From positions 4,059,080 to 4,123,079 of the forward strand of contig NZ_NKFP01000006.1 in NCBI RefSeq assembly GCF_002215035.1: a DNA stretch of 64,000 nucleotides. The letters are read 5' to 3'. The notes under the pieces were generated by a model, which was not told the origin of the DNA, made no database searches, and saw only the letters and a program-made list of their open reading frames with translations. The position numbers and the translations under genes are program-made. Source of the DNA: Leptolyngbya ohadii IS1 (GTDB lineage: Bacteria > Cyanobacteriota > Cyanobacteriia > Elainellales > Elainellaceae). The number at the start of each line of letters is the position of its first letter. The stretch's first letter is position 1. Shown piece by piece: positions 19,907 through 25,410 of this stretch.

Positions 19907-21241
19907 TTAATTCACCCGACTGGTTTCCCGCCTCAGGCTCACAGAGGGTTGATTTTGAGATGCACGGGGCTGAAGCAGCATTTGGGCGATCGCCGGACGC
20001 AGCACGCTAACCGCCTGGGCATACTGGGGATCGGCATCCGTACCCACGAGAGCCAAATTTCCTGCCAGGGTGCGCTGCTGTTGCTCGTTCAGGCTGATCT
20101 CCACATCCGGTGTAATTCCCCGGTGACTGATATCTGTTCCACCCGGCGTGTAGTAGTGAGCCACCGTTACCGCCAGACCAGAACCATCCGAGAGTGAATG
20201 CACCGACTGCACCAGCGCCTTACCAAACGTCCGAGTTCCCACAATCACGGCTCTGCGATTATCCCTCAGGGCACCCGTTAGAATTTCGCTGGAGCTTGCC
20301 GAATTGTTGTCTACCAGCACTGCCAGGGGGAGCTGGGTCAGGGCAGTATGGTTTGCCATGATCTGATCGCTATTGCCACGACGATCGACTGTCCGCACGA
20401 TCGCACCTCCATCCAGCCACATGCGCGAAATTTCGACGCTAGCTTGCAGCAGACCGCCTGGATTGCCGCGCAGATCCAGCACAAAGCCATCCACTTTCTT
20501 CGACAGCAAATCCTGAATTGCCGCCTTCATCTGATCCGGCGCATGGCTGCTGAACTCGGTCAGACGAATATAGCCAATCCGCTGATTGCCTTCCTGCCGC
20601 AGTTCGTGAGCAACGTTGGGCAGCTCAATCCGGGCACGGGTCAGAGGCAGGTCAAAAGCACGGCTGTCTCGCTCAATTCGCAGCGTAATCCGGGTTCCGG
20701 CTTCACCCTTAATTAAGTCAGAGGCAGTCTCTACGCTCATCCCCTGGGTCGATCGTCCATCGATGGCAAGGATGCGATCGCCTGAGCGAATTCCGGCAGT
20801 GCTGGCAGGAGAATTGGCAATGGGTTCTACCACGGTTAGGGCTTTAGTTTGCTCATGTAGCTGAAGCCGTAAGCCCACTCCAGACAGTTCACCCGATGTC
20901 TGGCTCGTGAGCGCCTGATACTGCTTGGGATCAAGAAAACGGGTATATGGATCGTTAAGCCGCTGAAGTGCCTGTCTGAGGGCAGCATACGCAGCTTCCG
21001 GTGAAGCATAGTCGCGGCTGAGCAAATCCTGACGGACTGCCTGCCAATCCACACTGTTAAAAGTACCGTCTACATATTCGCGATCGACAATCTGCCACGC
21101 TTCATCCAGCACGGCTTTAGGACTATTTTGAAAGGCGGCGTGGGCAACGGAATAGAGGGGAGAGAGAACGGAAACTGCGGCGATCGTACCTCCGAAGCAA
21201 GCCGCTTGCAGAAGGCGGGAAAGGCGAGGGAAATGATTCAT
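19907..21241 (-). CDS. Carboxy-terminal processing protease (S41 family)
   Basis: A 444-residue exported protease. A signal peptide ends near SVAHAA. The tail-specific N-terminal helices follow, then a PDZ domain (GVGLRLQLHEQTKALTVVEP to IRSGDRILAIDGRS, about 120-190), then the catalytic core LDLRGNPGGLL, VDNNSASSSEILTGALRD with nucleophile S316, and GTRTFGKALVQS with K341. The Ser-Lys spacing of 25 agrees with the D1 C-terminal protease. Cyanobacteria have three paralogues (CtpA processes the D1 precursor, CtpB and CtpC less defined); which one this is cannot be settled by eye. Confidence 0.92.
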   Translation of the reverse strand: MNHFPRLSRLLQAACFGGTIAAVSVLSPLYSVAHAAFQNSPKAVLDEAWQIVDREYVDGTFNSVDWQAVRQDLLSRDYASPEAAYAALRQALQRLNDPYTRFLDPKQYQALTSQTSGELSGVGLRLQLHEQTKALTVVEPIANSPASTAGIRSGDRILAIDGRSTQGMSVETASDLIKGEAGTRITLRIERDSRAFDLPLTRARIELPNVAHELRQEGNQRIGYIRLTEFSSHAPDQMKAAIQDLLSKKVDGFVLDLRGNPGGLLQASVEISRMWLDGGAIVRTVDRRGNSDQIMANHTALTQLPLAVLVDNNSASSSEILTGALRDNRRAVIVGTRTFGKALVQSVHSLSDGSGLAVTVAHYYTPGGTDISHRGITPDVEISLNEQQQRTLAGNLALVGTDADPQYAQAVSVLRPAIAQMLLQPRASQNQPSVSLRRETSRVN

Positions 21242-21830
21242 AAAGGGTAGACCCAGAAAACTGAAAACGATACCAGGGGCTAACCCACATCACTAACCGC
21301 ACGCCGGCGGGCTGGAGATGGGTCAGATGAGTCTGTTCAACCGTCTGCTAAGAGACAATCAGTGGAAAAGGGAAAGTAGCGTAATGGATAGTATAGAAGC
21401 GTGCCGCCCCAACCATCATGACACGACCGCAGAAGCGTAATGACTTCTATAAATCTTATTAAGTATTAAGTTTGTTCACCCATCCCATCCGGGTCGAGGA
21501 ACCGAAGGATAAACACACCATAACCTCAATGCCCATAAGCATGACGCACCGGAAGCGACTGGCGAAAACTAATGCACCCCATGCCTCAAGCCAAGCCGCT
21601 ATCGAAACAGGGAGAGGCTGAAATCTTCCTAGATAGTGTAGCAAAGGGAAGTCTGGGAGTGGCAAGAGTCTCACAAAATTTGTAGTGCTAGTTGTCCCTT
21701 TTTGATGTATTCAGGATGTATTCAATAGGCTCTTGATTCAGTAGGGTCTGTCCTTAAAATTGCCCTGTCCACCCAAACCAAGTACATCACGAATGCAAAG
21801 ATTTAAGGTACAGCGGCACCCCTGCTGCGG
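21242..21830. other. Intergenic region between ctp and hetR
   Basis: About 590 bp upstream of ctp and downstream of hetR, both on the minus strand. It contains GC-rich hairpin-like stretches (ACGCCGGCGGGCTGG near 21301) and the likely ctp promoter. The 71-codon frame at 21459-21674 has random composition. No structured RNA or regulator site could be supported. Confidence 0.35.
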
Positions 21831-22841
<1,011 letters not shown>

Positions 22842-22848
22842 CTAACAC

Positions 22849-22876
22849 AACTGTATCAACTTAACTGTAGCAACTT
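22849..22876. repeat. 14-bp tandem repeat upstream of hetR
   Basis: AACTGTATCAACTT (22849-22862) is followed directly by AACTGTAGCAACTT (22863-22876), 13 of 14 bases identical. It lies about 120-145 bp upstream of the hetR ATG and could be a regulator binding pair. Confidence 0.7.
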
Positions 22877-23016
22877 GCATTAACAGCGTTAACGACACTG
22901 TGTTCACGACTGAGCTAGCGGTTGAGTCTGTCCGGGGCTGCCCAAGATGTTTGAGCACCCTGCTGAACGTTATGCCTCAACTTTTGTTGACACCATTTGT
23001 CCTGGCACTGATGCGA

Positions 23017-23052
23017 ACATCATTCGCGCTGAGGACATCGTTTGCACTGAGG
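23017..23052. repeat. 18-bp tandem repeat upstream of hetR
   Basis: ACATCATTCGCGCTGAGG (23017-23034) is followed directly by ACATCGTTTGCACTGAGG (23035-23052), 15 of 18 bases identical. It lies about 290-320 bp upstream of hetR. Confidence 0.6.
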
Positions 23053-23337
23053 AGCATTCTGCCATTAATCTCTTTAGAAGAAAATTAATGCACCTGATAT
23101 GGCAGACTAGCTTATTGTAAAAGATACTGGTGCGATAATATCCACCGTGAATATGTGGAAATATCGATATTTCTGCCCAATTGCAGTGTATCTTCTCAGT
23201 AGATTTACTGTACGTCTTGATCCACCCGTCTTTCCAAAAACTTTATAATTCACGCTAATCAGCGTTTGAATTGTATTTTTGATGGGACTGACAATCATTG
23301 GGAATTTTGTTTACCCCAAAGCAATGGATATATAGCG

Positions 23338-23556
23338 CTAACGACCGCTGCCTCGATGATCTTCCGGCGGCACAACTTGTGTCATGAAAGCAGTTGAACG
23401 AGAACTGCGATCGGCGGACTTGCGTTGATTGCAAGAACTGTCAACCCAAATAGCAGAGCAACGCTGCTCCTGGGAAGTCATCGAAAAAGAAGAACCTACG
23501 GCATGGAGCGCCAGAAGGGCTAAGCTGATCGAACACAAAAGCGAGGAGGTCAGCAT
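23338..23556 (-). CDS. patX: PatX-like exported peptide precursor ending in HRGSGR
   Basis: A 72-residue ORF whose last six codons read HRGSGR before TAG (23340-23338). The N-terminus, MLTSSLLCSISLALLALHAV, is a signal-peptide-like hydrophobic helix followed by GSSFS, a plausible cleavage region; the middle is polar with two cysteines. RGSGR is the pentapeptide of PatS that binds HetR. PatX proteins of filamentous cyanobacteria are defined by exactly this layout: signal peptide plus C-terminal RGSGR-type motif. The gene is on the same strand as hetR and about 0.6 kb upstream. The in-frame TAG 9 bp before the ATG fixes the start. I expect it to be exported and processed to a small peptide that limits HetR in neighbouring cells; the processing site is not known. 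Confidence 0.88.
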   Translation of the reverse strand: MLTSSLLCSISLALLALHAVGSSFSMTSQEQRCSAIWVDSSCNQRKSADRSSRSTAFMTQVVPPEDHRGSGR

Positions 23557-23970
23557 GAGAGGCTTCTAGGTAAGCGTTTCTGATTCCAGATACGTCTCCT
23601 AGGTGCATCAATCAGGAAAGTTCGATCGACTTTATATTAAAATTGGTTTTTGCAAAAAAGCGATGAATTTTTAATTATTCCCACAATTAACATCATTATC
23701 TCACCCCCTGTACTACCCCAAAAATTAAGCATTTACCGCTTCTTTATGAATGCTTTATTAAACAGGAAGTCTGGCAGAAATTTTGACGGGAAGTTTGGCA
23801 AGGAGTGTGGAGGTGTTCCCCCTAGATTGTTTTATTCCTGTATCCTGTTTTCATTCCAAAAGAGATTGAACTAGTGCAATTGTTGTTGCAAAAGTGCATC
23901 TTTTAAGGATAATGACGGGGAGACCTTATACTGGGCAATTGCCCCTCAGCTGTCCTAATCACTTCTAGCC
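23557..23970. other. Divergent intergenic region of patX and ictB
   Basis: About 410 bp between the divergent patX and ictB starts, AT-rich in the middle, so promoters for both genes are expected. A near-palindrome AAAGT-TCGATCG-ACTTT (23617-23633) lies about 60 bp upstream of patX, directly next to TTTAATATAAA, a possible -10 region on the minus strand. The frame at 23650-23874 looks random. No terminator is evident. Confidence 0.4.
23617..23633 (-). promoter_or_regulatory. Palindromic element in the patX promoter region
   Basis: AAAGT and ACTTT flank a TCGATCG core, adjacent to an AT-rich TATAAAG stretch on the minus strand and about 60 bp upstream of the patX ATG. It could be an operator. 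CGATCG is common in this genome, so chance is possible. Confidence 0.3.
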
Positions 23971-25410
23971 GTGCAACTTCAAACGACAATTCAGTCCCTC
24001 TGGCAGCAGTTCACCCTGGTTGGATTGCCGTTGGAGCAATGGAGCCGATCCAGTTTTGCCCATTCTCCGATCGGCTGTTTGCAACGCTGGCGCAGTGGAA
24101 GCTGGCTCATGCAGTGGTCAGACTCCATTGGAGGTTTACTGGCAGCCATCATTTATGGTTTGGCTCCCTTTCTATCTACGGGGATCATTGGTGTCCTGCT
24201 GATTGCCTGCGCTGCTTACTGGCTGCTGCTCACCCTCTCCGACGATGGCGAAGCCGGATCAGGATTAACGCCGATCCATTTACTGGTGTTGCTGTACTGG
24301 GGAATTGTAACGATCGCCACTGCCCTGTCTCCGGTACGAACCTTTGCAATCGAAGGTTGGACAAAGTTAACCCTCTATCTGCTGCTGTTTGCGCTGCTGG
24401 CACGGGTTCTGCGATCGGCACGAGTGCGATCGACTCTTATTACGGTCTACTTAATGACTGCTCTGGTAGTTAGTATCGGCGGACTGCGGCAGTGGTTTTT
24501 TGGCGCAAAGGAGTTGGCGACCTGGGTTGATCCCGAATCCTCTCTGGCAGGCACAACGCGGGTGTACAGCTATTTGGGCAATCCAAATTTGCTGGCTGCC
24601 TACCTGCTTCCGGCAGTGATTTTTAGTGCAGTGGCTTTCTTTGCATGGAAGCGATGGACGCCAAAGCTGCTGGCGCTGATCATGTGGGTCGCAAATTCCG
24701 CCTGTCTGGTGTTGACCTTTAGCCGGGGCGGTTGGATTGGCTTTTTGCTTGCCAGCTTTGCCCTGCTGGTTCTGCTGATTCACTGGTTTAGCATTTACCT
24801 GCCGCGATTCTGGCGGGTCTGGCTACTGCCGATCGTCCTGGGTGTCTTTGCGACACTGGTGATCGCTGCTGTGATTGTGGTTGATCCCCTGCGCGATCGG
24901 GTGATGAGTATGTTTGTAGGGCGGGAGGACAGCAGCAACAATTTCCGGATCAACGTCTGGACTGCTGTGATTCGCATGATTCAGGATCATCCAATTCTGG
25001 GAATTGGTCCTGGCAACGATGCCTTCAATCGAGTCTATCCCCGCTATCAGGAGACGGGATTTACTGCTCTCAGCGCCTACTCGGTCTTTCTGGAGCTTGC
25101 CGTCGAGGGCGGAATTTTAGGCTTGGGCGCGTTTCTGTGGCTGCTGCTGGTCACGTTTAGCCAAGGCTGGTCGCAGGTTCAAAAGCTCCGACAGGTTGCC
25201 AATCGAGAAGGCTTCTGGCTAATGGCGGCACTGGCAACAATGGTGGGAATGCTGGGTCACGGACTCGTCGATACGGTCTGGTATCGTCCGCAGGTGAGTA
25301 CGCTGTGGTGGCTGATGGTGGCGATCGTGGCGAGTTACTATCCGTCCTTTCAGAAGTCTACCGATGCAGCAGAGAGTGAAGAAACGGAGGCTGGAAAGGC
25401 GTTGTCCTAG
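23971..25410 (+). CDS. ictB: IctB-family membrane protein (O-antigen ligase superfamily)
   Basis: A 479-residue inner-membrane protein with about 10-11 hydrophobic helices. Landmarks typical of IctB are YSYLGNPNLLAAYLLP, TFSRGGWIGF, and GREDSSNNFRINVW followed by ILGIGPGNDAFNRVYP. IctB was first linked to inorganic carbon accumulation in Synechococcus. The Wzy_C core it shares with O-antigen ligases leaves the biochemical role open. The GTG at 23971 gives the conserved N-terminus (QSLWQQFTLVGLPLEQW). A bidirectional terminator follows at 25499-25520. Confidence 0.9.
   Translation: MQLQTTIQSLWQQFTLVGLPLEQWSRSSFAHSPIGCLQRWRSGSWLMQWSDSIGGLLAAIIYGLAPFLSTGIIGVLLIACAAYWLLLTLSDDGEAGSGLTPIHLLVLLYWGIVTIATALSPVRTFAIEGWTKLTLYLLLFALLARVLRSARVRSTLITVYLMTALVVSIGGLRQWFFGAKELATWVDPESSLAGTTRVYSYLGNPNLLAAYLLPAVIFSAVAFFAWKRWTPKLLALIMWVANSACLVLTFSRGGWIGFLLASFALLVLLIHWFSIYLPRFWRVWLLPIVLGVFATLVIAAVIVVDPLRDRVMSMFVGREDSSNNFRINVWTAVIRMIQDHPILGIGPGNDAFNRVYPRYQETGFTALSAYSVFLELAVEGGILGLGAFLWLLLVTFSQGWSQVQKLRQVANREGFWLMAALATMVGMLGHGLVDTVWYRPQVSTLWWLMVAIVASYYPSFQKSTDAAESEETEAGKALS

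What the first reader, a model, noticed from the sequence alone, without database searches (positions are those of the whole stretch)
23338..23556. patX-like signal gene beside hetR
A 72-aa ORF with a signal-peptide-like N-terminus ends exactly in HRGSGR and lies on the same strand, about 0.6 kb upstream of hetR. RGSGR is the PatS pentapeptide that inhibits HetR. PatX proteins combine signal peptide and terminal RGSGR-type motif. Regulator plus peptide signal in one small locus is a complete lateral-inhibition module. The gene is short and easily missed by annotation.
Basis: partly seen in the sequence, partly recalled or inferred. Interest (0 to 1): 0.85.

Follow-up and report, generated by a model that had tools for sequence, protein, structure and literature searches.

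The report
patX inhibitor-peptide gene beside hetR
A very short gene beside the regulator gene hetR of a filamentous cyanobacterium encodes a small protein ending in the peptide known to switch HetR off; such pairs are already known, but in close relatives the gene is often much shorter, and the same genome has an even smaller candidate beside a second hetR.

Summary
Minus-strand ORF 23338-23556 (72 aa) ends exactly in DHRGSGR and lies 607 nt upstream of hetR (21831-22730, minus strand). It is best read as patX. In the window's family, 33 main hetR genes could be checked (at least 800 nt of upstream sequence); 32 have an RG[S/T]GR ORF at the same place, and all 32 carry TCCTGA 57-67 nt before its ATG, the place of a DIF1-type promoter. 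The six HetR residues that grip the inhibitor peptide are intact. patX-hetR pairs are in print, also for non-heterocystous Leptolyngbya, so this is a new member of a known kind, although it scores below NCBI's curated PatX cut-off (14.9 of 30 bits). Three additions: PatX is only 26-40 aa in 9 of the 32, mostly without a strongly hydrophobic N-terminus; the same genome has two further hetR genes, one preceded by a 13-aa ORF ending in RGSGR and by five GGGN5CCC HetR-type sites; and ctpB, a C-terminal processing protease gene, follows hetR in 15 of 34 family loci. Export is plausible but unproven, and nothing here shows expression or function.

The parts
23338..23556 (-). patX: 72-aa ORF (stop codon included in the coordinates)
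23341..23358 (-). codons of the terminal HRGSGR, the presumed HetR-inhibiting hexapeptide
   Evidence: translation; activity of HRGTGR/ERGSGR peptides from PMC12756182 and PMC4649674
23494..23556 (-). hydrophobic N-terminus (residues 1-21), candidate export signal without basic residues
   Evidence: hydropathy 2.65 over 12 residues; no signal-peptide predictor available
23612..23617 (-). TCCTGA, DIF1-type hexamer 61 nt before the patX ATG
   Evidence: same place in 32 of 32 family patX genes
23586..23593 (-). GTATCTGG, second conserved block between the hexamer and the ATG
   Evidence: alignment A1; position
22731..23337 (-). 607-nt gap between patX and hetR; no TCCTGA, TCCGGA or GTAN8TAC on this strand
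21831..22730 (-). hetR (299 aa), presumed target of the peptide; six peptide-contact residues intact
19907..21241 (-). ctpB, C-terminal processing protease; neighbour gene, link to PatX only a lead
   Evidence: NF045589 664.3 bits against 633

Best explanation
The ORF is patX. A small precursor is made from a DIF1-type promoter (TCCTGA near -35), is exported through its hydrophobic N-terminus and trimmed to the terminal hexapeptide HRGSGR. The peptide, in the same or neighbouring cells, binds the hood cleft of the HetR encoded just downstream and takes HetR off DNA. Shown here: the gene, its synteny, the promoter element, the terminal motif, the intact HetR pocket. Inferred from work in Nostoc: export, trimming and inhibition. 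What the pair controls in this lineage, which does not group with heterocyst formers on the HetR tree (quick tree), is unknown; necridia formation has been proposed for such species (PMC12756182).
For: Terminal DHRGSGR, shared with the same-genus genome and the next genus. 32 of 33 family hetR loci have an RG[S/T]GR ORF on the same strand upstream, 32 of 32 with TCCTGA 57-67 nt before the ATG; over all families 71 of 76 distinct ORFs; 41 of 42 where only one start is possible, so not an effect of start choice; control stretch 0 of 73. In the own genome the spaced promoter pattern occurs three times, and only this copy precedes an RG[S/T]GR ORF. HetR has R223, E253, E254, D256, D270 and D278, the contacts given in PMC4649674 (passages).
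Against: Below the curated PatX cut-off (14.9 of 30 bits). The hexamer is TCCTGA, not the TCCGGA of Anabaena. No basic residue before the hydrophobic stretch. G013 keeps hetR without the peptide. In Leptolyngbya BL0902 patX effects were called basically independent of hetR (PMC11298460). The middle of the protein is not conserved (38% and 31% identity to its two nearest relatives). Of 79 named hetR loci with enough upstream sequence, 45 have no RG[S/T]GR ORF within 1.5 kb upstream; many of these are heterocyst formers and some are not.
Confidence: 0.85

Rival explanations
1. The gene is patX, but the product stays in the cell or membrane: the N-terminus is not an efficient export signal, and RGSGR acts in the producing cell, like a cytosolic PatS.
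For: No Lys or Arg before the hydrophobic stretch, several after it. Near relatives have 26-40 aa forms, most with weak hydrophobicity, under the same promoter.
Against: The hydrophobic stretch is kept in the two nearest relatives while the middle of the protein is not. In Nostoc, PatX without its signal sequence no longer blocked differentiation (PMC12756182).
Confidence: 0.12
2. Chance ORF: an RGSGR ending that happens to lie upstream of hetR.
For: Such endings do occur by chance: 11 RG[S/T]GR-stop sites in the genome. Of the 8 read besides the window's, 1 has a TCCTGA in the stretch searched.
Against: Position, promoter and motif recur in 32 of 33 family members; about 0.0007 expected at one hetR by chance.
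Confidence: 0.01
3. A patX gene that acts on something other than HetR in this lineage, or has become inert.
For: PMC11298460 reports patX effects in Leptolyngbya basically independent of hetR.
Against: Over 172 hetR rows (with duplicates) R223, E253 and D270 never vary, and the RGSGR end is kept while the rest of PatX changes.
Confidence: 0.1

Closest known systems
PatX of Nostoc/Anabaena PCC 7120
   Same: Small protein, hydrophobic N-terminus, [H]RG(S/T)GR motif, DIF1-type promoter position (PMC12756182, PMC7761841, PMC7377430).
   Different: HRGTGR there, HRGSGR here; TCCGGA there, TCCTGA here; here the gene lies directly upstream of hetR. 14.9 bits against a cut-off of 30 in the NCBI model.
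patX-hetR of Leptolyngbya sp. BL0902
   Same: patX directly upstream of hetR in a non-heterocystous filament, with a predicted DIF1 promoter; BL0902 also has three hetR-like ORFs (PMC11298460, passages).
   Different: BL0902 has no nif cluster; the window's genome has nifH (469.1 bits, cut-off 394.35). The BL0902 sequence itself was not compared.
PatS of heterocyst formers
   Same: C-terminal RGSGR that inhibits HetR; the 13-aa ORF beside the second hetR of this genome resembles PatS in size and lacks a hydrophobic N-terminus.
   Different: The window gene is 72 aa with a hydrophobic N-terminus; PatS is given as 17 aa (PMC12756182).

Membership tests
PatX | RG(S/T)GR motif at or near the C-terminus | tested here: met
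   ends in DHRGSGR
PatX | hydrophobic N-terminus / Sec signal | tested here: inconclusive
   hydropathy 2.65 over 12 residues, no basic residue before it; no SignalP
PatX | occurs with hetR | tested here: met
   607 nt upstream of hetR; 32 of 33 family loci alike
PatX | DIF1 motif at -35, just upstream of the gene | tested here: inconclusive
   TCCTGA at -61 from the ATG, as in 71 of 76 distinct ORFs; literal TCCGGA absent. Whether the founding paper counts TCCTGA as DIF1 could not be read
PatX | NCBIfam NF047413 curated cut-off (a detection threshold, not a biological feature) | tested here: not met
   14.9 of 30 bits; of 10 other hetR-linked PatX chosen from 76, 9 are also below and 1 (Arthrospira) above
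PatX | peptide binds and inhibits HetR | not testable with these tools
   pocket residues intact in the window's HetR; needs a binding assay
PatX | maturation by PatP | not tested
   no family accession or reference sequence for PatP at hand
PatS | very short peptide (17 aa) without export signal | tested here: not met
   72 aa with a hydrophobic N-terminus
HetR (neighbouring gene) | full-length HetR with Peptidase_S48 and hood domains | tested here: met
   NF009718 571.3 bits; PF03574 and PF18460

The most novel reading that the evidence does not exclude
In the window's family the exported PatX inhibitor has been cut down in stages to a PatS-sized peptide, outside the heterocyst formers. hetR-linked PatX is 61-72 aa with a hydrophobic end in 17 of 32 genomes; others keep promoter and place but only 26-51 aa. 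In the window's genome and in one other genus (G006), an extra hetR that groups next to a short-PatX branch has upstream of it only a 13-aa ORF, or one of 10 aa from its nearest ATG, ending in RGSGR, with GGGN5CCC sites upstream; in the window's genome the extra HetRs also have two changed pocket residues (N256, N278; the one of G006 keeps D). The genome would then hold two inhibitor-HetR pairs, one exported and one cytosolic, as Nostoc does with PatX and PatS: a worked example of how a PatS-type gene can arise from PatX.
Probability: 0.4. Interest if true: 0.65.

Novelty: new member of a known kind. Interest (0 to 1): 0.42.

Why it matters
What HetR and PatX do in filaments without heterocysts is described as unknown (PMC11298460), and how the tiny PatS peptide arose is, to my knowledge, open too. 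A family in which the hetR-linked inhibitor runs from 72 aa down to 26 aa under one recognisable promoter, with one genome that also has a 13-aa candidate beside a second hetR, makes both testable. The promoter-plus-motif signature also finds patX genes that the curated profile misses: 10 of 11 hetR-linked genes tested, the window's included, score below its cut-off. Surveys that rely on profile cut-offs and a signal-peptide filter may therefore score 'hetR without patX' where patX is present.

Tried and rejected
A protein search with the window PatX over 60 genomes gave matches at E <= 10 in 47, but apart from the gene itself the best was E 0.017, and the same-genus match was on another contig than hetR: no ortholog found this way. 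I anchored on hetR instead. The NCBIfam PatX model over the own genome gave 3 sub-threshold places, the window gene best (E 0.806); 12 of 14 control genomes also rang at E <= 10, none over the cut-off.

TCCGGA upstream of patX: absent. GTAN8TAC (NtcA-like, motif from recall) on the minus strand of 22731-23960: none. GGGN5CCC in the window: 21 against 20.2 expected, nearest at 21276 and 24524, so by this test patX-hetR has no HetR site of its own. Rfam on 21500-24500: no match at E <= 1. Promoter-like sites were no more frequent than in shuffles (1 against 2.3) and terminator-like sites hardly so (2 against 1.1).

Inverted repeat between TCCTGA and the ATG (consensus CCGTATCAG...CTGATACGG): best stem 5.42 pairs against 4.42 in mononucleotide shuffles over 71 sequences, but 4 against 4.23 in the window gene. 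On 49 of the 71 sequences 69.5% of cells pair against 66.7% in shuffles (4 of 500 reach it) and the covariation score is 0.205 against 0.174 (13 of 500). Suggestive in relatives, broken in the window gene; I claim no structure.

One origin of all short PatX on the HetR tree: not rejected (p-AU 0.235), so one reduction or several cannot be told apart. Fewest changes on the tree: 3 with two length classes, 5 with three.

ctpB as the PatX-trimming protease: directly downstream of hetR in 15 of 34 family loci (two of the 34 have under 1.2 kb downstream, so the absence there is untested); inside the window's subclade it is missing in G003, G010 and G018. Over 159 loci with at least 1.2 kb downstream, 23 have a hit, two of them only distant (25% and 28% identity) and some duplicates of one genome. 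A lead only. The promoter pattern was too strict (it did not match the window itself) and says nothing.

Elhai and Khudyakov 2018, the founding PatX paper, is not held; what I say of it is recalled or quoted through later papers. Whether the short PatX forms or the 13-aa ORF are in print was looked for only (listings, plus the sections and passages named in the report); none that I saw mentions them, but the 2018 paper may.

Full report
What is there. The finding's coordinates hold a 72-aa ORF on the minus strand, ending in DHRGSGR. hetR follows 607 nt downstream on the same strand (21831-22730, 299 aa; NCBIfam HetR 571.3 bits; ungapped alignment of residues 1-297 to the solved HetR 4hri). The next gene is ctpB (19907-21241, NCBIfam CtpB 664.3 bits). 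No other ORF of the window ends in RG[S/T]GR; one more frame holds the motif six residues before its stop.

Is it more than chance? RG[S/T]GR followed by a stop occurs 11 times in the 7.9-Mb genome (translated), so about 0.0007 are expected within 1 kb upstream of a given gene on its strand. The stronger evidence is comparative. I read the DNA around hetR in 80 named contigs (the best 80 of 320) and around hetR genes of unnamed relatives (76 of 117 genomes have one; not every match was fetched). In the window's family 36 genomes are held. Two have a broken main hetR in the assembly (G028, G033); of the other 34, 33 have at least 800 nt upstream. Of these 33, 32 have an RG[S/T]GR ORF upstream on the same strand, and all 32 have TCCTGA 57-67 nt before an in-frame ATG. 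The exception, G013, has a TCCTGA 270 nt before hetR but no peptide; two RG[S/T]GR-stop frames elsewhere in G013 have no TCCTGA upstream in the stretch searched. Among the named loci 34 of 79 with enough upstream sequence have such an ORF; the 45 without include the heterocyst formers, where patX is not next to hetR within the stretch read, and several Oscillatoriales-type records. Over all families 71 of 76 distinct hetR-linked ORFs have the hexamer, at 55-69 nt. The start was chosen partly with the hexamer in view; where only one in-frame ATG exists it is 41 of 42. In a control stretch 100 nt further up it is 0 of 73.

Promoter. The alignment of 49 sequences gives TTTTCCTGAT, a loosely conserved spacer, CCGTATCAGGnAnTAGAAAC, and the ATG some 20 nt on. 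In Anabaena the DIF1 hexamer TCCGGA, proposed to sit at -35 of patS and patX, needs HetZ for full activity (PMC7377430, passages). Here the hexamer is TCCTGA, and TCCGGA is found at this place in 0 of 73. That it is the same promoter type is inference from its position. In the window it lies at 23612-23617, with GTATCTGG at 23586-23593. The spaced pattern occurs three times in the genome; only this copy precedes an RG[S/T]GR ORF.

Receptor. PatS6 is held by E253, E254, D256, D270 and D278 of HetR, and R223 lies near its C-terminus (PMC4649674, passages). The window's HetR has all six. Over 172 hetR rows, which include duplicates of one genome from two collections, R223, E253 and D270 never vary.

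How it likely works. In Nostoc, PatX is exported, processed by the peptidase PatP, and its hexapeptide HRGTGR binds HetR (88 nM) and takes it off DNA (PMC12756182: introduction, part 1 of 3 of Results, phylogenomics, discussion and bioinformatic methods read). The window gene has the corresponding parts. Export is the least sure step: the hydrophobic stretch is good, but no basic residue precedes it. Against the simple picture, patX effects on transcription in Leptolyngbya BL0902 were called basically independent of hetR (PMC11298460, passages).

Known or new. The pairing of patX with hetR outside heterocyst formers is in print (PMC7761841, abstract and introduction; PMC11298460), so the gene is a new member of a known kind. 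The curated profile does not reach its cut-off for this gene (14.9 of 30 bits) nor for 9 of 10 other hetR-linked genes that I chose from the 76. A 2025 survey that used profile cut-offs plus a signal-peptide filter scored 12.0% of genomes as patP and hetR without patX (PMC12756182). Part of that may be missed genes; I tested none of its genomes and could not see which profile it used.

Beyond the finding: short forms. PatX lengths in the family fall into 26-51 aa (15 genomes) and 61-72 aa (17). Nine are 40 aa or less, with best 12-residue hydropathy 0.72-2.02 (one above 2.0), against 1.72-3.29 in the long ones (15 of 17 above 2.0). Promoter and place are the same. On the HetR tree eight of the nine short forms fall in two groups near the window's: one of five (97/88), one of three (96/76, or 96/81 with the extra HetRs); the ninth, G015, is elsewhere. 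One common origin is not rejected.

Beyond the finding: a second locus. The genome has two more hetR genes 3 kb apart (C6:387340-388233 minus and 391253-392137 plus), 69% and 68% identical to the window's HetR and 91% to each other. Upstream of the first is a 13-aa ORF, MKPQSTDGRGSGR, its motif 217 nt before the hetR start; the second has no such ORF within 1.5 kb. Five GGGN5CCC sites, the core that HetR binding needs (PMC4649674), lie within 312 bp upstream of the 13-aa ORF, four of them 37-39 bp apart; the whole 16-kb stretch has 11 against 4.96 expected, reached by 4 of 200 shuffles. The extra hetR of G006 has an ORF ending MNSDQRGSGR, 10 aa from the nearest ATG, at a similar place; an upstream in-frame ATG would make it 38 aa. 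These extra HetRs group together beside the three-member short-PatX group (96/81). The two of this genome have N256 and N278 instead of D; that of G006 keeps D. No TCCTGA precedes either ORF at the usual distance. The 13-aa ORF may still be chance; that two of the genome's three hetR genes have an RGSGR ending just upstream speaks against it.

Verdict. Ordinary as a gene, useful as the way into a family in which the inhibitor differs strongly in size.

Noticed in passing
L174:5341-10138 (G000 contig C6, 387-392 kb): Two extra hetR genes in opposite orientation, 91% alike; a 13-aa ORF MKPQSTDGRGSGR and five GGGN5CCC sites upstream of one.
   Followed up: partly
window 19907-21241: ctpB, a C-terminal processing protease gene, lies directly downstream of hetR; kept in 15 of 34 family loci, in the window's subclade. 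A possible but untested link to trimming of PatX or of its C-terminal tails.
   Followed up: partly
L066, L077, L185, L186, L187, L218, L219 (upstream of hetR): hetR-linked PatX with three or four RG[S/T]GR copies in one protein, like a polyprotein precursor.
   Followed up: no
window 23560-23620 and the same place in relatives (alignment A1): An inverted repeat (consensus CCGTATCAG...CTGATACGG) lies between TCCTGA and the patX ATG in many relatives but is broken in the window gene.
   Followed up: partly
L194 (G055), upstream of hetR: Two RGSGR-bearing frames upstream of one hetR, one with DERGSGR followed by 14 residues, one ending in ARGSGR.
   Followed up: no
L139 (G013): hetR kept while patX is gone; a TTCCTGATTCACC stretch resembling the promoter is left upstream.
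   Followed up: partly
G000 contig C6:251465-252277: nifH above its curated cut-off (469.1 against 394.35 bits), so the genome probably can fix nitrogen although its HetR does not group with heterocyst formers.
   Followed up: no
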